Assembly: GCF_900110645.1 (NCBI RefSeq)
Contig: NZ_FOFB01000005.1
Coordinates: forward strand, 1-64,000
Direction: 5' to 3'
Source of the DNA: Neolewinella agarilytica
Lineage (GTDB): Bacteria > Bacteroidota > Bacteroidia > Chitinophagales > Saprospiraceae
DNA: 64,000 bases
The position numbers and the translations under genes were made by a program. The notes beneath the pieces were generated by a model, which saw only the letters and a program-made list of their open reading frames with translations, had not been told where the DNA came from and did not search any database. Below, one piece after another: positions 36 to 10,942 of the stretch. Each line of letters opens with the position of its first letter. The first letter of the stretch is position 1.

Positions 36-3000
36 TTAGGGCAAAGCTCTGGCGCGGAGTTGGGGTTGACAAGATGTGGTTGGTCGGACGCTTACGTTTA
101 ATAAACCTAAATTAGAAGTTGCTTCAGTGACCAAAGGATCGGCGGTCATTGCTACTTCCAGTAACTGCTCTATTTTGGTTAACCGGTGTAAGGTGGTGTT
201 TTGATTTTTTTGTTGTTCAGAGAAAGCTAATCCTATGGTGGACCATTGGGAACGCTCTTCTGATTTGGTGGCTTGCTGGCTACGGTAGAAAACGCGCTTG
301 GCTTCCCAATCAGAAGTCTCAGGAAAATTCCCATAAATGAAGTTGTCTTGCAACACCTTTTGGGTAAATTCATTATCTGCTGCCAGTCGATTGAGCGAAG
401 GTCTTTCACAATTATCTGCATCGTCTTCGCATACTAATGATTCTTGGCCTGGCACAAACCATTCTGTAGTTGAAGCTGCTACAAAGATGTCTTCTGGCCA
501 AACAGGTGTTCCTTCGGGGGGAATAACAAAAAATCTAGACTGGGCAACATTAAAGCCGTCTTCACTAAGATGCATAGCGTCATTCCAAACGCTTTCACTC
601 CAAGCGTTCCCTGCGGCAATTTGTGGACCTATTCTAGCGCCTTGGCTTAAAATAAGACCAATCAAATTGTCTTTAAAAGTATTATGACGAAGTTTGGTCT
701 CATCACAAATGCCAAAAAATATTGCTCCAAACTCAGCATCCTCAACGTTGTTACAGCATAATACATTACGGTCCCCACTATCAACGGTAATCGCTATTTC
801 CTTATGGCTTAGTCCGTTGCCAGATACTAGGTTGCCATATAAATAGTTGTCACTTGATGAACGAAGAAAAAGTCCTGATCCACTATGAATCTCACTGTAG
901 GTGGGTAAGAAATTAACTTGGTTATTTGCAATAGTAACACCATTTACATTGTGGAGAGCTATTCCATTTCCAAACCTGCGTAGATTAATAGTATTTCCAG
1001 TTAAGTTTAGGTTGTCTAGGTTTTCCCCTGACATCATAGCATCCTCTAACCTTATCGCTGAAGTGAAAATAGGACTTATTTCAAGGCCAGGCTCTGGGGG
1101 GTAAAGCTCTACTGTGTTGTTTTCAATGAACAATTTGTTGGCATGCTGAGCATTAGAAATTAAGATGCCAAATTTTCGGGAATAAATTCTATTCTGGTTG
1201 GTTATTGAGGCAGTGTGTCCGATGCTCATACCTAAGGATATACCTGTTTTGATATTGCCCCGATCACCCGATGAGTTTTCTCCAATAATATTATTCCGGC
1301 AATCGAGAGAAGATTGATTGCCTAATATGCCATGTTCCATGTCATATAACCGACTGTTTCGCAAGCCAATCCAAGAGTTAGACTCCGCCAATATACCAAC
1401 ATCTCCACCAGAGGCATCCAGTGAAGGAATGGTGTTGTAGATACTTGAGGAAACAATACTTACATTGGAACCACGAGCGATGACGCCATAATTTGCACCA
1501 GTAATATTGATGCCAATATTACTGGCACCAATCTGAAACTTCTTACAATCGTTTATTTCTACACCCGCGTAGCTCTTGCCAGTTGTCTGTACTTCCTGGC
1601 CGAGGTAAGGAGGTAGCAGGTCTCCTGAAGCTTGAATACTTGAATAATGGATGGGGGTTGGTTGAAATACGACCTCTGTGCCGGGCGTAAGGGCAGGTCG
1701 TTTGTAAATACCAATATGGTTTCGGTTTAAGGTAGAATAAATCATTTCGAAAGAGCTACCATTGCTAAGGGAAACCGCATGAACGGCGTCTTCGATTCTG
1801 GCACCGGTTAGTTTCAATCTACCTCCAGGTCTATTGGTTGTTTGGGGGGCCAGAGAAATCCCGTGCCATAGGTTTTCGCAGCCATGGATGCCACCGTTAG
1901 TGCTAAAGCCAACTGAAAGGGCTGCACCCGACTCGATAATAATGTGCGCGCCGGGCTGCATGCGAACTTCACTGGAATTGATATTATAGAATCCATTACT
2001 TCCCATAGCCGCCTCGTCAATAAATAAATTACCAGAAATAGCGAGGCATTTTTTGAAGATGCTGTTAGGTGTGATTTCACCTAGGGCAATAAACTGACTT
2101 AGTAGGGTGCCGTCACCTGCATCCAGGTTGATGGCGTTGGTTCCCTCACAGGCGCAAGTGAATGGCGAATCGTTACATTCTGTTACGGACACAGTAAATT
2201 GCTCCGTTAGTGACTCCACCGCGCCGCACTGGTTTTCTGCATTAAGAGTAAGTGCGATTGAATGATCGCCTTCATTAATTTCTGCGTTTGGTAATGCGTT
2301 GAATGTGACGGTAGAACAACTGTTCCCTAATATTTCGAAGTTGTCATCACTAATACTGAATTCCCAACCAGGAAGGTTGTTTATACCCAAGGAAAGAGAG
2401 ACTGATTCAGTAGCATTGTTGCATATCTCAAACGATAATAATTCAGAAGTGCTTCGGCATAGAATATTCGAGGATATTTGAGTTGTTTCAATGTTTATTG
2501 GACAACGTGTAGTGACTTCTATGTTGTCTAAGTAAAACCCTCTGGTTGTATTCGGATTTTCAGGTGAAACTAAAACGTATATGAAATTAAGAGGGGATTC
2601 AGAATCATTGCTGAAAGTAAATGTGTAAGGTTCAAATGGAGGAGGAGATTCAAATACTCTATTCCGGTTATATGTATCTGCTCCTCCTGTTACATCATTG
2701 GATTGCCCCAAACAATAAGGAACAAAAACATCATCTCCACAGTCAGTTCCAAGGTCGTTGCAATCTGCGGGGACACCAACTGGGATTTCATTAGCTGAAC
2801 ACATCCTTACTTGACTTCCCCAGAAGTCAAGTAATCCCGAATTACCCGAAAAGACAGCGTCAAAACCAATGGTAACTTCGCAACCCGGGAGAATAGGGTT
2901 CAGTAATTCAATAGTTAATGGAGTCCTGGTGAAAAGATAAACGTGATTGTTAGGAGGGGAGGTTGAGAATCCAAGTCTTGGAAGCCCCAATGCGTCGCGA

Positions 3001-3458
3001 TTAATTTGCCGAGTAATTTCACCAAGGCTAATGAAAGAATTCGTCCGAGGGTAATTTTCAAAGTCTGTACTGCAAGAAATATTTCCGCAAATTGTTTCTT
3101 GGATATCACTACAGTCGTCACAAACTGCATTTACAAAAAAGGCATGATTAAGCACAGTCGTTTCACCATTATCACAAGCTGTTACGGGAAATTGCACAAG
3201 CATGTCTCCATGAGAGTTTGGGCTTACAAAAATTGTAATCATATCACCATTGATGTCAATTTCAATGGTGCTGTCCACCAGATCATCACCGTTTTCAATT
3301 AGTACAATAGGTTCTCCCCATTCAAAATTTTCACTATTGGTATGTATTCTAGTGAGTTCTGACAACGATAATGTGGTGCTGTCACCGGCACAAATGTTTG
3401 GTATAAAAGAGCAAGGGTCTGCAATCGCTAATCTTCCGTTATTATTGCTTATCCCCAT
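36..3458 (-). pseudogene. 3' part of an IS-split secreted protease/beta-helix gene
   Basis: This is the distal 1140 codons of a large secreted protein. It has no signal peptide of its own; it begins abruptly next to the left end of the IS element. The frame stays open upstream of the ATG at 3458 through codons reading RAWCFV, which include the target-site duplication. Removing the IS and one duplication copy fuses it in frame to the 4997-6248 fragment. The region around residues 440-950 has repeated short Asn/Gly-rich strands with NIGINITGANYG-type turns typical of right-handed parallel beta-helix (PbH1) proteins, which often bind or cleave polysaccharide. Earlier residues look like beta-sandwich modules with many Cys. 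The C-terminus lacks a recognisable T9SS sorting domain, unlike other cargo here. The DNA is AT-richer than most of the window. Expression as a separate protein is unlikely. Confidence 0.8.
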
Positions 3459-3469: not shown

Positions 3470-5008
3470 AAGCTCGTTAAGCTAAGCATTTTCAGGCTCT
3501 GCTTTCAGCTTACTACAAACACAAAAATTTGTACTGGAACAGCATTTTGCCCTAATGCTGTATCTTAGACAATAAGGTGCCCGTCCAGGCATAAGGTGGC
3601 TGGTGTTTTTGTGACCCGATAAAGTTGATGTTTAGAGCGTTGGCTTATAATTTGATTCATAAATATGTCGTCCTTGGCCCCTTAAAATTTTTCGATTTCT
3701 AGGTCGGCTTGGTCGGGGCCTTTTAGCTTCCAGGTGATGTGTCATTTTATCCAGTAGAACCAACAATCGTGCTTTCCATTTCCTCATTGGGTCTAGGAAA
3801 ACATAGGTTAGATTACGCTTGATCAGCCCGAGGGTCACATTTCGATTGATCGTGGCGGGATATTTTCTTTTTTGGCTTACTTTTTTTACCTCATCCTCTT
3901 GGGAAGTGATCATCATGGACTGAATGTTGTACATGGCGTATTGTGCCCAAATATCTTGTTCTATGCCCTCTGGTTTATAAGAGGAGAATGCCGTTAATTT
4001 CCCGTAGCTCTTAATGCAAAAGATAGCTGTTTCAACACCCCATCGAGCGTTGTACAGCCCTGCGAAAAACCGGTGTGGATACTTCCTTTTATCGCAGAGA
4101 GTAGTCATAAGTATTTCAACTTCGCCTGTGGGCAATAGAATTTTGAGGAGCCTGACTTTGACGAACTCATCATGATCGATACGGACGCCTTGTTGAGCTA
4201 CGGTTCTACGGCATTTATGCTTAGGCGATACGTTTATATGTCGTTCTTTATCAGTGCTTTGGATGAACTGCTTAACAACGGGACTTACGTCTGTTCTTAG
4301 TCTTACAATACAATTGGATCCATATCGGAGATGTAATAATGGAATAGCATAACTGGCAAAACCTCGATCATAAACGGCCAGGAAGTCTTTGGGGAAGTCA
4401 GGAATCCAAGCATAGTTAACTTTAACCTCAGATACTTCCCGAGGGTGGTGCTCTACATCGTATATGATTTTATTGAGAACATCAAAAGCAATGAGTGCTC
4501 TGGTGGAAGGGACTCTGTTGTGTTGATTCCCGTGCCACCCATAACTTTCTCCAATGTCATTGTCCTCAGGTAGTCTAAATCCAGTGCCATCAATAGCTAT
4601 TAGCCGGAAGCCTTTCCAGCGTTTTGCTTTGAATCTTTTATAGAAAACATCTGCAGTGACTACGAATAAATCCCGGAAGAAAGCAGGCTTAATCAACTGG
4701 CGTCTTTGGCATAAAGCGCTCTTAGTGACGCTGTCTATTTTCAATCTGCCAAAGAAATCAAAGAGTTCAATACTAAGGCTATTGCGGAGAAGACCAAGAA
4801 CGAGCAGAACTGTCCGAGAAAATAGCAATGGGCTTTCTCTTATAAACCAGCGATGTGGTTCATAGAGATAAGCGTGTCTTTTTTGAGTATCTAGTTCCAG
4901 GAACTCTCGGATATCTCGAATGGCTTTGAATATAGGAGCGTGCTGCATGGCTCCTTAAATTAGGTGCAATTGTACTATCTTGGGTTTGGGCTTAGCTTAA
5001 TGGGCGTG
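3470..5008 (-). mobile_element. Complete IS4-family insertion sequence, about 1.54 kb
   Basis: The element carries one transposase gene and has imperfect terminal inverted repeats. The left end (3470-3487) and the complement of the right end (4990-5008) share TTAAGCTAAGC exactly and most of the outer 7 bases. It is bounded by an exact 11-bp duplication, AACAAAGCACC. It sits inside a secreted metalloprotease/beta-helix gene in the same orientation. The upstream half of that gene reads three codons into the IS (HAH) before a stop. Intact ends, duplication and transposase point to a recent insertion. Confidence 0.92.
3632..4948 (-). CDS. IS4-family DDE transposase
   Basis: This 438-residue protein would catalyse cut-and-paste transposition of the surrounding element. 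The catalytic triad is visible: Asp120 in AIDGTGF, Asp194 in AVYDRGFASY and Glu306. Glu306 lies in YNARWGVETAIFCIK, which fits the IS4 signature Y-(2)-R-(3)-E-(6)-K exactly. The C-terminus is very basic (KRPRPSRPRNRK), suited to DNA contact. Length is normal for the family and no frameshift or stop is seen, so the enzyme is probably active. The ATG at 4948 lies about 60 bp inside the right end, as expected for a compact IS. Confidence 0.95.
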   Translation of the reverse strand: MQHAPIFKAIRDIREFLELDTQKRHAYLYEPHRWFIRESPLLFSRTVLLVLGLLRNSLSIELFDFFGRLKIDSVTKSALCQRRQLIKPAFFRDLFVVTADVFYKRFKAKRWKGFRLIAIDGTGFRLPEDNDIGESYGWHGNQHNRVPSTRALIAFDVLNKIIYDVEHHPREVSEVKVNYAWIPDFPKDFLAVYDRGFASYAIPLLHLRYGSNCIVRLRTDVSPVVKQFIQSTDKERHINVSPKHKCRRTVAQQGVRIDHDEFVKVRLLKILLPTGEVEILMTTLCDKRKYPHRFFAGLYNARWGVETAIFCIKSYGKLTAFSSYKPEGIEQDIWAQYAMYNIQSMMITSQEDEVKKVSQKRKYPATINRNVTLGLIKRNLTYVFLDPMRKWKARLLVLLDKMTHHLEAKRPRPSRPRNRKILRGQGRHIYESNYKPTL

Positions 5009-5019
5009 AACAAAGCACC
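5009..5019. repeat. Target-site duplication, right copy
   Basis: This is the second exact copy of AACAAAGCACC, directly outside the right IS end. In the host gene it encodes the Cys-Phe-Val found on both sides of the insertion. Confidence 0.9.
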
Positions 5020-6228
5020 CCTCACAATCAATAGATGGTGTTTGATACCCCATTGCGCAAAATATCGCCTGTTCCTCTGCACTGATAGTCCTCACGGATT
5101 GACCTGGTGATAAACCTGGGCCCATTACGTAATTTACAGTCTCTCCACAAATGTTCACAAAATGACTAAACCCATTGCCGATTCTTTCTATCGGAAATCC
5201 ACCACTCTGCATAGCTATTTCATCAGAAGCCAAAAAGCCGATAGATAGATCATCATTACAATCATTAAATAGAAAATCATTTATATCAGGATGGTAGGTG
5301 TAACAGCCTGGTTCAGTAGGATTAGGAATAACGAGTGGTGAGTTTATGCCAGCATCATCTTGAACCCGTAATTCTAAATCATATCTTGAAGATCCATTAA
5401 GTGATGGATCAATACGTGAAGCAATTCCGAGTACATGTAATAACTCATGAAGAAAAATAGAATGTAAGTCAAATTGAGATTGTGTAGGGGTGGATGGATT
5501 GTCTACTGAGTTTATTAAGTAAGTGAAATCTCCTCCGGAATAGTCAGATACATTACTGTTTAGGAGTATTCTTCCATCAAGTGTGCCTGGGGAGCGAATC
5601 CATCCTCCATTAATTTTGGAAAAAGGTCGGTCTGCTGCAATACCCAGACAAAAAGACGAAACTGTTCTTTCGTAAAATGGAGAGCCAATTCCCAAAACTC
5701 CGGTATCAGGTGCAGGAAGGGTATCTATGTTGTTTTCCTCCCAAACTTCGGCGTCAGGGTTTCCAAAATCCCCCCACAATATGTCTAAGTTGAGTTGATA
5801 GTTTTGGCTGCATTCATCTACTCCTTGAGTCTGAGTAAATTGAGTGGATACTTCTAGTAATATCGCATTGATCAGAGATTGTACTTCTTCCGGTACGTTT
5901 TTATAAATTGGATTAAAGTACCCCGTTTGAAATTTAATAGGTTCTCCATATTCACTTACTCTATCAAGTGTACTTTCAGGAAGGGAGATATCTTCTGCTG
6001 AATAATAATTGCCAAAACGATCAGAATAAACACGATCGCCGTCTTCGGCTATTGGAATGTCCGGTTTTTCATTGTGATTGGAGGCTGGATGAAGCGAACC
6101 ACAAAAAGAAAGTGTGGTTTGTCCGCCAGGCTTATCTGGTTTTTGTGCAAAAACCGTGACACTTGAAACGAATAAGCAAATAAGAAGGAATAATGAGCTG
6201 AATCGGGTAAACCCCAGGATTGGGGTAT

Positions 6229-6362: not shown

Positions 6363-7367
6363 TCAATTCGCTAAATCTATTTGGACTTCCAAATCCCCTC
6401 CCTCCTCCAAAACCACCACCGTCTTCTCCACCCCTAAATGAAACAACCTGGGAAGTTCCTGCTCCAGATGGCCGTCTTCTTTCAGCTGCCGGAGGCCCAT
6501 CTTGAACGCAAAGGGAATATTGTCGGGATAGCGGGAGAGACCGAGGTAAAAGCCTTGGGCGAAACTGATGGCGACACCGTTTTCGATTTCGTCGGACATA
6601 CCGACGACGTAGGGGACGTAAGCCGAAATCACCCGGGCCTGGTTTTCGCTCAGGCAGGCGTTGAGGAAGACGAGCTGCAGATCAAGTACTTCCTGCAGGG
6701 TGCTGAAGATGTCTTTAAGGTCTTCGGTGGAGGCCACCTCCGGGTTACGCTCCCGGTTCTGGAGGATGATGCCTTCGGGGTTCCAGCCGTCCTGGTCGTC
6801 TACGCCGTGAACGGAGAAGTGTACAAAACGGGGCTTAGCGTCGAGGATGGTTTGGGTCAGGGTGTCGCGGCGGAGGTCCATTTCGGGCTTCAGGCGGAGA
6901 TCACTGTCGCTGATGACGATGGATATTTTGGAGATCTCCGTGTCCACCATCAGGTCGCCAACGCCGCGGGGGTCGGAGGCGAGGAAGAGGATGGTTGCAG
7001 GTTGCAGGTTGGGAGTTGCAGGTTGCGAGTTGCCGGGTGCCCGTTGCGTGTTGCCGGGTGCCGGTTGCCGGGGTGCGGGAGGAGCGGGAACCTCAGCCGT
7101 GATGGTGTCGATGATTCTCCGGTGGCGATTCAGTATTTTGAGTAAATCCCCTCTGGCCTGATTGTAGTCAATGTCGATCAGCCGCTGTTCTTTTGTTTGG
7201 TTCATCTCATCATCTTCGATGCCACGCAGGCGGCCGCTAAACAAGGAAATTTGCTGTTTCGCCCGCCGATTAGCATTGATCTCAGGCTGTTCGCGCAGGA
7301 AATCGATGACAGTGCGCAGGTGATTTTCGGCGGTGAGGTCTTCTAGTTGACTGAGAATGGTGGGCAT
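6363..7367 (-). CDS. EAD11-like / CHAT caspase-like protease
   Basis: This 334-residue cytosolic protein has two parts. Residues 1-90 are alpha-helical and resemble effector-associated domain 11, a short adaptor in bacterial conflict proteins. Residues 125-330 form a CHAT (caspase HetF associated with TPR) peptidase fold, with His187 in FVHFSVHG and Cys238 in LVFLNACLSENQ as the expected catalytic dyad. Between them (about 93-125) is a Pro/Ala/Gln/Asn linker encoded by a GC-rich minisatellite. The caspase-hydrolase gene lies 197 bp upstream on the same strand. CHAT proteases act in several prokaryotic immune and cell-death pathways, so a role as a triggered effector is inferred; the substrate is unknown. 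CHAT assignment is firm, EAD11 moderate. Confidence 0.8.
   Translation of the reverse strand: MPTILSQLEDLTAENHLRTVIDFLREQPEINANRRAKQQISLFSGRLRGIEDDEMNQTKEQRLIDIDYNQARGDLLKILNRHRRIIDTITAEVPAPPAPRQPAPGNTQRAPGNSQPATPNLQPATILFLASDPRGVGDLMVDTEISKISIVISDSDLRLKPEMDLRRDTLTQTILDAKPRFVHFSVHGVDDQDGWNPEGIILQNRERNPEVASTEDLKDIFSTLQEVLDLQLVFLNACLSENQARVISAYVPYVVGMSDEIENGVAISFAQGFYLGLSRYPDNIPFAFKMGLRQLKEDGHLEQELPRLFHLGVEKTVVVLEEGGDLEVQIDLAN
6993..7078. repeat. Minisatellite encoding the CHAT protein linker
   Basis: This is a degenerate array of GGTTGCAGGTTGCxxG-like units. In the minus-strand gene it reads as a Pro/Ala/Gln/Asn-rich hinge. The unit resembles the 14-bp unit of the array at 48256-48388. Confidence 0.7.
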
Positions 7368-7521
7368 GTTTATTGATATGGTGTACAGCCCGTGATTTAG
7401 ACGAAGAGCTATACTGGTAACTTTTACTTGGAAGTGGGGCGAAGCCCCTCAACCGGGCACTTTCGGTCTATGCTTGAGGGCTATGTTAAGAGCCATAGCC
7501 ATTGCTCTCTAAAAACTCCCC

Positions 7522-7541
7522 CTTGCACCCGCGTCCGCGCC
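7522..7541 (+). repeat. Dispersed 20-mer repeat, intergenic
   Basis: CTTGCACCCGCGTCCGCGCC, one mismatch to the consensus CTTGCACCTGCGTCCGCGCC, between the CHAT and caspase genes. Confidence 0.75.
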
Positions 7542-7564
7542 CCCGGCTAAGCTTACAAAAGGGC

Positions 7565-10500
7565 CTAAACAGGAGGCTCCTCCGGAAAGATATCCCTAAG
7601 ATAACTTTCTAATCGTTCAATGGCCGCCGGCGTGACGAAGTAGCTCATGTGATCGGACGGAACGGGAGCTTCTTCAATCTCCAGCCCCGGCACCTCCCGC
7701 TGGCTTTTCACCGAAACGGCAATATCCGTTGGTGCCTGGAAGAAGGTCGCATCCACCAATTTCTGATAATCGATTTTCGCGATAATTCGGCGGAAAAAGC
7801 CCATGGTTTCTTCATTGACGTCGGGCAGCAGGCGAATATCTCCATTGATGAGGGTGTACCTGACCGCTCCCCGGTCGCCGTCTTTGGCCAGCCGTTTAAG
7901 AAAATCGGAGCCAATCCTCATTTCTTTAAGCGTGGCCAGTGCCGTGTTGATGAACCAGCGCAGGCCTAAAATTGCGGGCACAAAGGGAGCGGCGGCGGAG
8001 GCGGCTCCTCCTTCCAGCGCCCGGGATAAAAGCGGCGTCATCCACTGCGCCGCATTACCGTAAGGACTGCCGCCGTTGGGCGTCCCGAACTGAATCAAGT
8101 GGCTCACTACCTGACGGCCGTGCAGCATTTCGATAAACGACCGGCTCACCAGCCCGCCCATGCTATGGGCGTAAACGTGCAGCGTTTTTCCGTGGTTTTC
8201 TCCCAGCCCTGCGTCCTTCAACTGACTTTGCAGTATCTCGGCGGTTTTCCCGATGGGCGTTCTCAGGTTTTCGTAATCGTAGGTGAGTAGCAGTGAATAC
8301 CGGCTTCCCAAAGAGCTGCCGTCCGGAAATTTTGCCCGTTCCAAAATGCCCGGTGCGGTCGTAGTGTCTCCAATAATGCCGTGGATGAAAAGGGCGATCG
8401 GACCGTCCGCCTGGCTGATGGCCGTTTTCGGGTCATCCGTAAGGTATTCCGTCGTCAGATCCTCTTTTACCCGGGCGACGCGCAGTTTGTTGACTTCGCC
8501 GACGGGCCAGGGCAGGTAGTCGTTGATCACTTGCCGGAAGAACAGCTTGATGGAGCCGCCCAAACTCCGGGTGTATTCTTCGGGTTGGGCATCGGGCAGT
8601 TGGTGCAGGACCATGACGCCCTTCTCTTTATCCGGAAAACCGACGGGGTAGTAGAGGCCACTGTCTTCATCGTAGCCAAAAATCAGCGCGCCCTGGCTGG
8701 CCATGTTTGTTTTCAGTTCCAGAGGAGACTGCTCCGTGACGGCTTCAGGCTTGTTCACGTTGAAGAGCTGGATCATGTCCAGCGGCGTCTCGTCGGCCAG
8801 GGCAGACCGGCTCGCCATCAGGCTCATGGGCTCCAGGAGATTTTTGCGGACGGGGCAGAGCGCACGACCAGCTCCGCACATCGCGCGGGTGGTACTCATC
8901 GAGGAATCCAGGGTCATTTCTCCGAAGCTGAAGCCTTCGGGGGCATTGGCGACACTTACCGGCGCAGCGGCATCATTTCCGCCGTAGGTTTTAACCCCGC
9001 CGGCGAAAAGCGGACGGAAGATGGTTACCGGTATATCCTTCACCCCCCAGCGATCGGGCCGACGCTTGAACAGGCCGCCAAGGCTGCCGGCGGCGCGGGT
9101 GTTTTTCGTCAGGTCATCGAGCCTGACTTGCTGCTGCAGCCCGGTTTGTTCCCATTCGTTGAGCTCAAATTCTGTTTCGGAGACGATCACCTTCAGGTAG
9201 TTGGTGATGTCCGTCACCCCCCAGCTTTGCAGCTCCTCAGAGATTTCTAAAACGATGAATTCCACCGGCGGGCTACCATCGTTACTCTCATCGGGTTCCG
9301 TACGGGTGGTGGTCGGTTCGTCGCCGGCTTCCAGCTTGATGACGGGCAGGAATTTGCCGCTTACGCCAAAGGCTTCATCGAGCAAAAGCATACCCACATA
9401 AAGCGGTTTCACCTGATTGGTTTTTACCTTGACCCGAAGTCGAAGGAGGGCGGGCAGCAGTTGGTCGCCGACCTTGGTGTAGGAGAAAACGGCGGTGCCG
9501 TCCAGCGCTTTGTTCTCGCTGTCGATGATCTCCCCGTATTCATTCGGGATGACTTGCTCGAGGGTGATGTCAACGGCCTGGTCAAGATCCAGAATGTTGG
9601 CCTTCGGGGCGAGGTTGAGCGTGCTTTCGTAAGTGCTTACTTTGGCGAGCTTATCGACAAAATCTACGGCCCAGCCGTCGGTCGGTTTTGGGACGCTTTC
9701 GAAGAGTGGCCGTTGCTCGCCCGGCAGCACCATACTGATGCCATAAACGGGCAGACGAACGACGTGATATTTAGCTGCTGCGGCATCCTCCGTCAGGCGG
9801 AGACAATCTCCTTCGTCTTCGATCAGATTGACGACGGAGGCGCGGGCCAGGGCAGGGAGGTCATCCGCAACATAGATCGCCATTGGATCCATCTTTTTCT
9901 CCACACTTACCAGCGGATAGGGCGCGGACGCAGGTGCCAGGAAAGGTTGAGGAGCAAGGTAGGCACGGCCGGCGTCCGTCCGCTGGACGGTCAGCTCCCG
10001 CTCCTCTTCTCCGTCCAGAACGATTACTTTGGCACCGGGCTCCACGCCCGCCATTGCTCCTTCATGGATGAGCCAACCGTCTTTTTCATCGTAGTGCAGC
10101 ACGAAGTCACGGCTCATCTTCAGCGCGCCGTTGAAGAAGTGCTGGTCCATGCTCGCCGCTCCGCTTGCCTGGGTATAAACGTCTTGTCCGCGATGATGAT
10201 TCTTTACCCGCACGCGCACCCTGGCCATCAGTTCCGCGTAGCTGCAGCTGGCCAGGTCCATACTGCTCATTACTTCAATCAGGTAATGGGTAAATAAGCC
10301 CCGCCGGACACCCTTGATCGGCATCTCCATCGCTACCTGCTCCGGCCGGCAGGCGGAGAGGGTGATGTGAGTCCTGACCGGAGGGGTGTAGTGCTCTCCG
10401 GTCCGGGCATATTCTTTATGACCATGAAAGTCTTCGATCCGCATTGCGGCACCGTTCTCGGGTACCGTCCTTGGCACGCCGACGGAAAGCCGGCTGATGG

Positions 10501-10942
10501 AGCCGGAGTTGCAGCTATCGGCGATGACCAGCACCTGACCGGCATTTGCCGTGTGTTTAGCGATCAGGTAGCTGATCTCTTTATCAGCCAGGTCCTTGCC
10601 GCCGGGCAGACGGCTGTCGTGCAGCACCATCGTCTGTAAGCGGCGTTTTACCTCTAAGTGCTGAAATTCCTTCGGCGCCATCATCTGTGCGCCATGACCA
10701 GTGTAGTAAAGCAGGCAAATGTCTTCCGCTCCCGCTCCTTCAAAGTGGCGGAAGCCCTCGAGCACGCCCGCCCGGCTCGCTTCGGCGTTACGCAGGCTTT
10801 TAAAATTCGTCTTTACGCCGTTCCGCTCAGCATACTCCTGCATAAAGGCCTCCATGGCGGCTACATCGTTGAGGCAACCGGGCAGGTCACTGATTCCCTT
10901 CGGGTATTCCGAGATAGCGACGAATAAAGCGTAGATGGTCAT
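7565..10942 (-). CDS. Caspase (C14) fused to alpha/beta-hydrolase
   Basis: This 1125-residue protein has no signal peptide. Residues 1-265 are a peptidase C14 domain with His83 in YYTGHGAQ and Cys144 in VIADSCNSG. Residues 270-770 are middle segments of mostly beta character that I do not recognise. Residues 780-1125 form a PGAP1/lipase-like alpha/beta-hydrolase: the oxyanion region is IALFIHGIIGD, the nucleophile Ser927 sits in YAHSMGGLVSR, and Asp1073 (PTDIAVSVKS) and His1098 (PSDHMSYF) complete a plausible triad. Joining a suicide-type protease to a lipase-like enzyme suggests a self-controlled effector: caspase cleavage could free or activate the hydrolase. Together with the CHAT gene downstream it forms a candidate two-gene conflict module. 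Domain calls are strong; function is inference. Confidence 0.85.
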   Translation of the reverse strand: MTIYALFVAISEYPKGISDLPGCLNDVAAMEAFMQEYAERNGVKTNFKSLRNAEASRAGVLEGFRHFEGAGAEDICLLYYTGHGAQMMAPKEFQHLEVKRRLQTMVLHDSRLPGGKDLADKEISYLIAKHTANAGQVLVIADSCNSGSISRLSVGVPRTVPENGAAMRIEDFHGHKEYARTGEHYTPPVRTHITLSACRPEQVAMEMPIKGVRRGLFTHYLIEVMSSMDLASCSYAELMARVRVRVKNHHRGQDVYTQASGAASMDQHFFNGALKMSRDFVLHYDEKDGWLIHEGAMAGVEPGAKVIVLDGEEERELTVQRTDAGRAYLAPQPFLAPASAPYPLVSVEKKMDPMAIYVADDLPALARASVVNLIEDEGDCLRLTEDAAAAKYHVVRLPVYGISMVLPGEQRPLFESVPKPTDGWAVDFVDKLAKVSTYESTLNLAPKANILDLDQAVDITLEQVIPNEYGEIIDSENKALDGTAVFSYTKVGDQLLPALLRLRVKVKTNQVKPLYVGMLLLDEAFGVSGKFLPVIKLEAGDEPTTTRTEPDESNDGSPPVEFIVLEISEELQSWGVTDITNYLKVIVSETEFELNEWEQTGLQQQVRLDDLTKNTRAAGSLGGLFKRRPDRWGVKDIPVTIFRPLFAGGVKTYGGNDAAAPVSVANAPEGFSFGEMTLDSSMSTTRAMCGAGRALCPVRKNLLEPMSLMASRSALADETPLDMIQLFNVNKPEAVTEQSPLELKTNMASQGALIFGYDEDSGLYYPVGFPDKEKGVMVLHQLPDAQPEEYTRSLGGSIKLFFRQVINDYLPWPVGEVNKLRVARVKEDLTTEYLTDDPKTAISQADGPIALFIHGIIGDTTTAPGILERAKFPDGSSLGSRYSLLLTYDYENLRTPIGKTAEILQSQLKDAGLGENHGKTLHVYAHSMGGLVSRSFIEMLHGRQVVSHLIQFGTPNGGSPYGNAAQWMTPLLSRALEGGAASAAAPFVPAILGLRWFINTALATLKEMRIGSDFLKRLAKDGDRGAVRYTLINGDIRLLPDVNEETMGFFRRIIAKIDYQKLVDATFFQAPTDIAVSVKSQREVPGLEIEEAPVPSDHMSYFVTPAAIERLESYLRDIFPEEPPV
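9921..9939 (-). repeat. Dispersed 20-mer repeat inside the caspase gene
   Basis: On the minus strand this reads TGGCACCTGCGTCCGCGCC, in frame as LAPASAP, in a linker after the caspase domain. Confidence 0.75.

What the first reader, a model, noticed from the sequence alone, without database searches (positions are those of the whole stretch)
6363..10942. Caspase/alpha-beta-hydrolase fusion next to an EAD11-like CHAT protease: candidate conflict module
Two adjacent minus-strand genes encode two caspase-superfamily proteases. The larger keeps an intact caspase dyad (His83, Cys144) and a complete-looking lipase triad (Ser927, Asp1073, His1098) in one chain. The smaller joins a CHAT dyad (His187, Cys238) to an adaptor-like domain. 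Seen: all motifs and the arrangement. Known: CHAT, caspase and EAD domains recur in bacterial immune and cell-death systems. Inferred: a cascade in which the CHAT protein senses a partner and the caspase unleashes the hydrolase. I know of no described system with this exact pair.
Basis: partly seen in the sequence, partly recalled or inferred. Interest (0 to 1): 0.75.

Follow-up and report, generated by a model that had tools for sequence, protein, structure and literature searches.

The report
Caspase-lipase fusion with a partner protease
A bacterium related to Lewinella carries one protein that joins a caspase-like protease to a lipase-like enzyme, beside a gene for a second protease; close relatives keep the active sites and mostly the pair, which suggests a protease-triggered, fat-digesting self-destruct device, though no activity has been tested.

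Summary
In detail: 7565-10942(-) encodes a caspase/alpha-beta-hydrolase fusion, 6363-7367(-) an EAD11-CHAT protease. In 52 full-length fusions the caspase His/Cys are 52/52, the hydrolase Ser/Asp/His 49, 52, 52 of 52. In the genus a CHAT gene is direct neighbour of 9 of 11 fusion loci found. Family-wide, 14 of 100 scanned neighbours of 54 fusions are CHAT genes (0.3 expected; 4 of 104 beside other caspases), in three architectures. Outside the genus the rate (6 of 44 loci) exceeds background but not other caspases (2 of 29). An Anabaena plasmid repeats the pair; a Nostoc plasmid protein adds a second caspase, a STAND NTPase and a sensor-like domain. The caspase-middle part also carries an unrelated GDSL lipase in 4 proteins, 2 beside CHAT genes. 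Best reading: a lipase under caspase control, triggered by a second clan-CD protease. Cascade order, lipid substrate and immune role are inferred. Caspase/hydrolase gene pairs and EAD wiring are published; this module was not found in the searches made.

The parts
7565..10942 (-). Caspase - middle module - alpha/beta-hydrolase fusion protein, 1125 aa (P0001)
10181..10933 (-). Caspase (Peptidase_C14, metacaspase/orthocaspase-like) domain, residues 4-254; dyad H83 (10694-10696) and C144 (10511-10513); conserved C23, D26, D142 and R158
   Evidence: Pfam E 8e-18; conservation; closest solved relatives by profile GSU0716 and metacaspases
9113..10135 (-). Middle module, residues about 270-610, no Pfam family found; also behind caspases that lack this hydrolase, or carry a GDSL lipase or EAD11 instead
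   Evidence: boundaries approximate
8423..9112 (-). Connector, residues about 611-840, with W632, P740, G768, P783 invariant in the 43 sequences of alignment A1
   Evidence: boundaries approximate
7613..8410 (-). Alpha/beta-hydrolase (DUF7379; lipase/PGAP1/LCAT-like) domain, residues about 845-1110; S927 (8162-8164), D1073 (7724-7726), H1098 (7649-7651)
   Evidence: boundaries approximate
6363..7367 (-). EAD11-CHAT protease, 334 aa (P0002), 197 bp downstream, same strand; the consensus scan lists no terminator-like site in the gap on this strand
7125..7358 (-). EAD11 (effector-associated domain 11), residues 4-81
   Evidence: Pfam E 8.9e-12
6540..6944 (-). CHAT protease core, residues 142-276; H187 (6807-6809), C238 (6654-6656)
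   Evidence: Pfam E 1.7e-6; dyad in 6 of 6; profile match to PDB 8tl0, E 1.4e-18, named SAVED-CHAT in PMC11417357 (passages)

Best explanation
The two genes form a two-protease effector module. P0001 is a latent lipase-type hydrolase carried on a caspase (metacaspase/orthocaspase-like) chassis; P0002 is a CHAT protease whose EAD11 adaptor plugs it into a sensor or scaffold that carries another EAD11. On a signal, probably invasion by a phage or other element, the CHAT protease is clustered and activated, cuts or activates the caspase part, and the caspase, predicted to cut after Arg/Lys, processes the chain so that the hydrolase is released or unleashed on membrane lipids, killing or stopping the cell. 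Shown by sequence: domains, conserved active sites, linkage of fusion and CHAT genes in the genus and its recurrence elsewhere, and exchange of the lipase fold on the caspase-middle part. Inferred: order of the cascade, proteolytic release, lipid as substrate, defence role.
For: Active sites conserved in 52 fusions, bar the Ser in 3; all five residues kept in the homologues on Anabaena, Nostoc, Rhizobium and Deinococcus plasmids. Genus: CHAT direct neighbour at 8 of 10 fetched fusion loci against 0 of 26 other caspases (p 1.5e-6). P0002 matches starting at residue 1-8 and reaching 310 or beyond occur in exactly the 6 of 21 genomes whose best P0001 match is above 50% identity (cut-offs set after seeing the data). 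Family: CHAT is 14 of 100 scanned neighbours against 0.31 expected from 615 CHAT matches in 294.6 Mb, and 4 of 104 beside control caspases (Fisher p 0.013); three CHAT architectures; at least 9 changes of the CHAT-neighbour state on a quick tree. Anabaena sp. 90: fusion, then TPR-CHAT 245 bp on. Nostoc: one 3057-aa chain = caspase-middle-hydrolase-second caspase-nSTAND1-periplasmic-binding-like domain. Caspase-middle with GDSL lipase in 4 proteins, 2 beside CHAT genes. EAD11 in 7 of 100 neighbours: 5 on CHAT proteins, one on a caspase, one on a protein with hydrophobic segments. Kaur 2020 (passages): VMAP systems with a caspase always have a neighbouring alpha/beta-hydrolase gene.
Against: 40 of 54 fusion loci have no CHAT direct neighbour. 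Outside the genus 6 of 44 do, against 2 of 29 other caspases (p 0.46), so there the excess may be general caspase-CHAT clustering; one of the two control hits is itself a caspase-middle-GDSL protein. G381 has its P0002 orthologue on another contig than its fusion; the second fusion of G116 has CHAT genes 1.0 and 3.2 kb away. Three of 52 hydrolases lack the catalytic Ser. No EAD11 partner was identified for P0002; the four other EAD11 matches of the genome are on other contigs. No enzyme activity, cleavage or phage phenotype was or could be tested; no structure was obtained.
Confidence: 0.42

Rival explanations
1. The fusion works by itself: the caspase senses a signal or damage and autoprocesses to release the hydrolase; the CHAT gene is an independent gene of the kind that clusters with caspases in these genomes.
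For: 40 of 54 loci have no CHAT direct neighbour. CHAT also sits beside other caspases more than background predicts (4 of 104 against 0.32), and outside the genus fusions do not differ from other caspases. Kaur 2020 predicts autoproteolytic effector deployment for EACC1 caspases (passages).
Against: Genus: 8 of 10 against 0 of 26 and matching presence in 21 genomes; the pair in Anabaena; the Nostoc chain joins a second caspase with a switch and sensor-like domain to the fusion.
Confidence: 0.33
2. The hydrolase is not a killing effector but a maturation or turnover enzyme, for example a lipoprotein or protein-acyl esterase in ordinary stress physiology or envelope remodelling, regulated by the caspase.
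For: The hydrolase resembles PGAP1, palmitoyl-thioesterase, LCAT and lipase families, which do not single out phospholipid attack. Caspases are numerous here: 1 to 22 matches in each of 18 genomes.
Against: Patchy presence (189 of 398 family genomes have any P0001 match), plasmid-borne copies in three other phyla, exchange of the hydrolase fold and neighbours or fusions with EAD11, STAND, TIR and CHAT domains fit conflict systems better.
Confidence: 0.2
3. The system is a Bacteroidota branch of the VMAP/MoxR-vWA ternary conflict systems, with the known caspase and hydrolase partners fused.
For: Caspase plus alpha/beta-hydrolase pairing is a stated rule of VMAP systems (passages); EAD11 is an effector-associated domain.
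Against: No MoxR, vWA or VMAP model was among the matches of nine window proteins or among the 25 families shown, of 102, for 100 direct neighbours of fusions; the rest of that list was not seen.
Confidence: 0.05

Closest known systems
Caspase plus neighbouring alpha/beta-hydrolase gene in VMAP/MoxR-vWA ternary conflict systems (Kaur et al. 2020, PMC7159879; passages read)
   Same: A caspase-superfamily protease and an alpha/beta-hydrolase as a pair; EAD wiring
   Different: Here both are one chain with a middle module, with no MoxR-vWA seen in the lists shown, and the neighbour is a CHAT protease. The word CHAT has 0 occurrences in that paper's held main text
EACC1-caspase two-gene system (same paper; passages read)
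   Same: Constant caspase part with variable C-terminal effectors, predicted deployment by autoproteolysis
   Different: P0001 scores 35 bits against the NCBIfam EACC1-type caspase model, cut-off 140; an EACC1 gene was not searched for
SAVED-CHAT protease of type III CRISPR (PDB 8tl0)
   Same: CHAT part related to P0002 by profile (E 1.4e-18; name from PMC11417357, passages). That SAVED-CHAT activates a caspase-like protease is recalled; no held paper has both terms SAVED-CHAT and PCaspase
   Different: EAD11 in place of SAVED; no CRISPR locus was looked for; the partner carries a hydrolase
Craspase: Cas7-11 with TPR-CHAT Csx29 cutting Csx30 (PMC10028731; passages read)
   Same: A CHAT protease controlled by a sensor cuts a partner protein; TPR-CHAT is the neighbour in 4 of our 54 loci
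   Different: Cas7-11 was not looked for; the putative substrate is itself a protease-hydrolase
Orthocaspases/metacaspases, e.g. MaOC1 (PMC7475262; passages read)
   Same: Closest solved relatives of the caspase part are GSU0716 and metacaspases; Arg/Lys specificity and Arg219 autocatalysis are stated for orthocaspases
   Different: No hydrolase cargo in the passages read

Membership tests
Caspase, Peptidase_C14, metacaspase/orthocaspase type | Pfam match over cut-off and His/Cys dyad | tested here: met
   E 8e-18; H83 and C144 52/52
Caspase, Peptidase_C14, metacaspase/orthocaspase type | Arg/Lys specificity at P1 | not testable with these tools
   D26 and D142 conserved; equating them with the acidic pocket of metacaspases is recalled
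Alpha/beta-hydrolase, DUF7379 | Pfam match over cut-off; Ser-Asp-His triad | tested here: met
   E 4.6e-11; 43 of 43 scanned members match at E 0.01; Ser, Asp, His 49, 52, 52 of 52
CHAT protease | Pfam match over cut-off; His/Cys dyad | tested here: met
   28.1 bits against cut-off 24; H187 and C238 6/6
EAD-wired conflict system (Kaur et al.) | EAD on the protein | tested here: met
   EAD11 E 8.9e-12
EAD-wired conflict system (Kaur et al.) | Second copy of the same EAD on a core sensor or switch, often in the operon | tested here: inconclusive
   Four more EAD11 proteins in the genome on other contigs, no Pfam switch domain on them at E 0.01; two have one hydrophobic segment seen by eye
VMAP/MoxR-vWA ternary system | MoxR, vWA and VMAP genes | tested here: inconclusive
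   Not in the lists shown for nine window proteins and 100 direct neighbours, 25 of 102 families shown; not searched genome-wide
EACC1-caspase system | Caspase scores over the EACC1-type model's cut-off | tested here: not met
   35 bits against cut-off 140
SAVED-CHAT CRISPR protease | SAVED domain on the CHAT protein | tested here: not met
   P0002 matches EAD11 and CHAT only in Pfam; PADLOC SAVED_CHAT, E 3.7e-4, with its best stretch at residues 123-224
Craspase | Cas7-11 partner | not tested
   no search made
Abortive-infection defence system | Protection against phage or toxicity on activation | not testable with these tools
   needs experiments

The most novel reading that the evidence does not exclude
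A widespread, undescribed class of 'protease-armed lipases': a caspase-middle chassis that carries interchangeable envelope-degrading enzymes (alpha/beta-hydrolase, SGNH/GDSL lipase, in two proteins also a peptidoglycan amidase) and is fired by a second clan-CD protease (CHAT or caspase) joined to exchangeable sensor parts (EAD11, TPR, STAND plus ligand-binding domain). It would be a bacterial counterpart of the caspase-gasdermin step, with enzymatic membrane digestion in place of a pore.
Probability: 0.36. Interest if true: 0.82.

Novelty: new variant of a known kind. Interest (0 to 1): 0.6.

Why it matters
If right, it gives a testable bacterial cascade in which one caspase-clan protease fires another that carries its own killing enzyme, and it would explain the published rule that caspases of one class of conflict systems come with alpha/beta-hydrolases. 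Copies lie on plasmids of named cyanobacteria, a Rhizobium and a Deinococcus, so cleavage order, lipid target and any anti-phage effect can be tested directly.

Tried and rejected
The fold of the middle module is therefore unknown and no fold search was run.

EACC1 and SAVED-CHAT membership were tested and not adopted; VMAP and Craspase stay open (see membership tests). Viral origin was considered: the viral-contig scan gave 22 loci, each matching only the caspase part (within residues 1-278) at 22-32% identity, and phage records gave one caspase-only match; rejected. Chance or artefact was rejected on conservation. The genome-contig scan gave one locus, L102, apparently the same contig as G385:C420. 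Cut sites: I saw only that R158, 14 residues after the catalytic Cys, is invariant (52/52; 4 of 4 plasmid homologues); whether it is a self-cleavage site or a pocket residue is open. Promoter-like sites were no more than in shuffles (4 against 3.1).

Selection limits. The 54 loci were picked by hand from the matches listed (189 of 398 genomes matched; the list was cut). At least five further listed long matches (G339, G058, G180, G151, G317) were not fetched with wide flanks; 5'-truncated G385 is in neither the 52 nor the 54. L082 and L084 are in the 54 but not the 52. One neighbour (L076:11493-19001) was dropped from the Pfam scan of fusion neighbours (100 of 101) and four (three of L131, one of L132) from the control scan (104 of 108), for the length limit. 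Controls were chosen by hand, the non-genus ones mostly from the top, and some are each other's neighbours. The local CHAT model was built partly from fusion neighbours and so favours them; by it 14 of 54 loci against 2 of 55 (p 0.001). By Pfam the difference is smaller (14 of 100 against 4 of 104, p 0.013). Eight of the 14 come from the genus. Background density counts only genomes with fusions. Four plasmid homologues, not a systematic survey, stand for other phyla.

Full report
What is there. The window is contig C37:1-64000 of a 6.22-Mb, 74-contig genome. The only named relative found by the genome-contig scan is an uncultured Lewinella contig (92% identity over residues 78-1121); that Lewinella belongs to Bacteroidota is recalled. 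Two minus-strand genes, 197 bp apart, encode P0001 (7565-10942, 1125 aa) and P0002 (6363-7367, 334 aa). Pfam finds a caspase (4-254) and DUF7379 (851-969) in P0001, EAD11 (4-81) and CHAT (142-276) in P0002, all above curated cut-offs. Neither chain has a strongly hydrophobic stretch (best 19-residue mean 1.44 and 1.20), so I take both as soluble.

Active sites. I aligned 52 full-length fusions, the window's included; the 42 relatives in alignment A1 are 21-57% identical to P0001. H83, C144, D1073 and H1098 are in 52 of 52; S927 in 49 of 52. The four full-length plasmid homologues keep all five. P0002's H187 and C238 are in 6 of 6 proteins aligned. The caspase part is closest, among solved structures, to GSU0716 and to metacaspases; D26 and D142 are conserved, which by recalled metacaspase structures predicts cutting after Arg/Lys. 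Passages on orthocaspases state Arg/Lys specificity, and autocatalysis at Arg219 for MaOC1 (PMC7475262). DUF7379 matches 43 of 43 scanned members, and PGAP1, palmitoyl-thioesterase, LCAT and DUF676 match 35, 33, 26 and 22; lipases and other alpha/beta-hydrolases are the solved relatives of this part.

Is the pair real in the genus? I found 11 fusion loci in the 21 genus genomes (list cut). Nine have a CHAT gene as direct neighbour: four EAD11-CHAT downstream on the same strand (window, G116:C28, G335, G345); G385, where the contig ends inside P0002's first 43 residues; one convergent EAD11-CHAT (G377); and three TPR-CHAT (G363, G006, G276). The second locus of G116 has CHAT genes 1.0 and 3.2 kb away and, 98 bp upstream, an EAD11 protein with several hydrophobic segments seen by eye. 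G381 has its P0002 orthologue on another contig. P0002 matches that start at residue 1-8 and reach 310 or beyond occur in exactly the six genomes whose best P0001 match is above 50% identity (1 in 54,264 for a random draw, ignoring descent, cut-offs chosen afterwards); G377 has a more distant EAD11-CHAT. Of the fetched loci, 8 of 10 fusions and 0 of 26 other caspases of the genus have a CHAT direct neighbour (p 1.5e-6).

In the wider family. Of 54 fusion loci, 14 have a CHAT direct neighbour: 5 EAD11-CHAT, 4 TPR-CHAT, 5 CHAT-X, a type with CHAT at the start of a 580-630-aa chain. Pfam gives 14 of 100 neighbours scanned, with 8 caspases and 7 EAD11 proteins. From 615 CHAT matches in 294.6 Mb of 44 genomes, 0.31 would be expected. 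Neighbours of 55 other caspase genes gave 4 CHAT of 104 by Pfam: more than chance, less than beside the fusions (p 0.013). But the difference comes from the genus: outside it 6 of 44 fusion loci and 2 of 29 control loci have a CHAT neighbour (local model; p 0.46), both well above background (0.25 expected for the fusions); one of those two controls is itself a caspase-middle-GDSL protein. On a quick tree the CHAT-neighbour state changes at least nine times. Forty of 54 loci lack a CHAT direct neighbour; seven of these have another caspase gene next to the fusion by the local model (caspase-TIR, caspase-EAD11, caspase-TPR, caspase-subtilase and others).

Beyond the family. In 395 genomes drawn from the phylum only the window's genome and G006 gave full-length matches at E 1e-30. 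Plasmid records hold four full-length fusions from three other phyla, annotated only as 'caspase family protein'. In Anabaena sp. 90 the next gene, 245 bp downstream, is a TPR-CHAT protein. In Rhizobium ruizarguesonis a CHAT gene lies upstream on the other strand, with two annotated genes between. In Deinococcus aetherius another caspase gene lies upstream with one gene between. In a Nostoc lichen symbiont one 3057-aa chain runs caspase (4-276), middle (288-868), hydrolase (881-1145), second caspase (1225-1378), nSTAND1 NTPase and a periplasmic-binding-like domain (2711-3040).

The chassis and its cargo. The middle module occurs in caspases of 615-668 aa without hydrolase. One caspase-middle protein of G164 carries a GDSL lipase in place of the alpha/beta-hydrolase, with a CHAT-X gene next to it. 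Three more, in two genomes of another family of the same class, do the same; all four pass the GDSL cut-off and two also carry an N-terminal Amidase_2 domain. One of these has a CHAT gene 31 bp downstream; the other two have no CHAT direct neighbour by the local model. The CHAT-X protein beside the G164 GDSL fusion is a homologue over about 550-580 residues of five CHAT-X proteins beside alpha/beta-hydrolase fusions; the other matches over the CHAT part only. So at least one CHAT type is found with the same chassis but different lipases. One further caspase-middle protein ends in EAD11 (L101). I read the exchange of lipase folds as the strongest hint that ester or lipid hydrolysis is the output.

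How it most likely works. The published EAD principle (Kaur 2020, 2021; passages) says EADs bring effectors to a core system by like-with-like contact. Kaur 2020 also reports that VMAP systems with a caspase always have an alpha/beta-hydrolase gene beside it. Put together, P0002 would be drawn to an EAD11-bearing sensor or scaffold, become active by proximity, and cut or activate P0001, whose hydrolase then attacks the envelope. A CHAT protease that cuts a partner on a signal is established for Csx29 and Csx30 (PMC10028731, passages). Every step after 'linked genes with intact active sites' is inference.

Novelty. Caspases, CHAT, EAD and caspase/hydrolase gene pairs are known. The fusion family with its middle module, the CHAT partner and the lipase exchange were not found in the held open-licence library by the listings of searches; seven papers were opened, as passages only. 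I rate it a new variant of a known kind of conflict system.

Noticed in passing
window 3632-4948 and 4997-5779 (-): IS4-family transposase next to a TTG-started metalloprotease-like ORF (NF038122, E 2.5e-9, below cut-off), just downstream of the CHAT gene.
   Followed up: no
L173:4585-8436, L174:4232-8140: Caspase-middle-GDSL proteins with an extra N-terminal peptidoglycan amidase (Amidase_2) domain.
   Followed up: partly
L165:3491-12664 (Nostoc plasmid NZ_CP026693.1): 3057-aa protein joining two caspases, a hydrolase, a STAND NTPase and a ligand-binding-like domain.
   Followed up: partly
L082:10231-12831; L084:9806-12406: A caspase-subtilase fusion gene sits beside the caspase-hydrolase fusion (Pfam on L082; caspase model on both).
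   Followed up: no
G000:C27, C30, C38 (L062-L064): Four other EAD11 proteins of the genome: a tandem pair of about 230 aa and two with one hydrophobic segment seen by eye; candidates for the EAD11 partner.
   Followed up: partly
window residue 145 of P0001; L013: DxCHSG reads DSCNSG here and in the 92% relative.
   Followed up: partly
L051:5768-12169: Fusion and TPR-CHAT genes of G100 lie in one frame, parted by a single TGA and 15 codons; may be chance.
   Followed up: no
L076:6006-7913: FGE-sulfatase-domain protein downstream of a fusion; that this is the FGS sensor domain of the Kaur papers is recalled.
   Followed up: no
window and L042, L043, L045: PADLOC tally over 55 proteins shows mad2, mad3 and mad8 models (best E 4.1e-58 for mad3), not placed on genes.
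   Followed up: no
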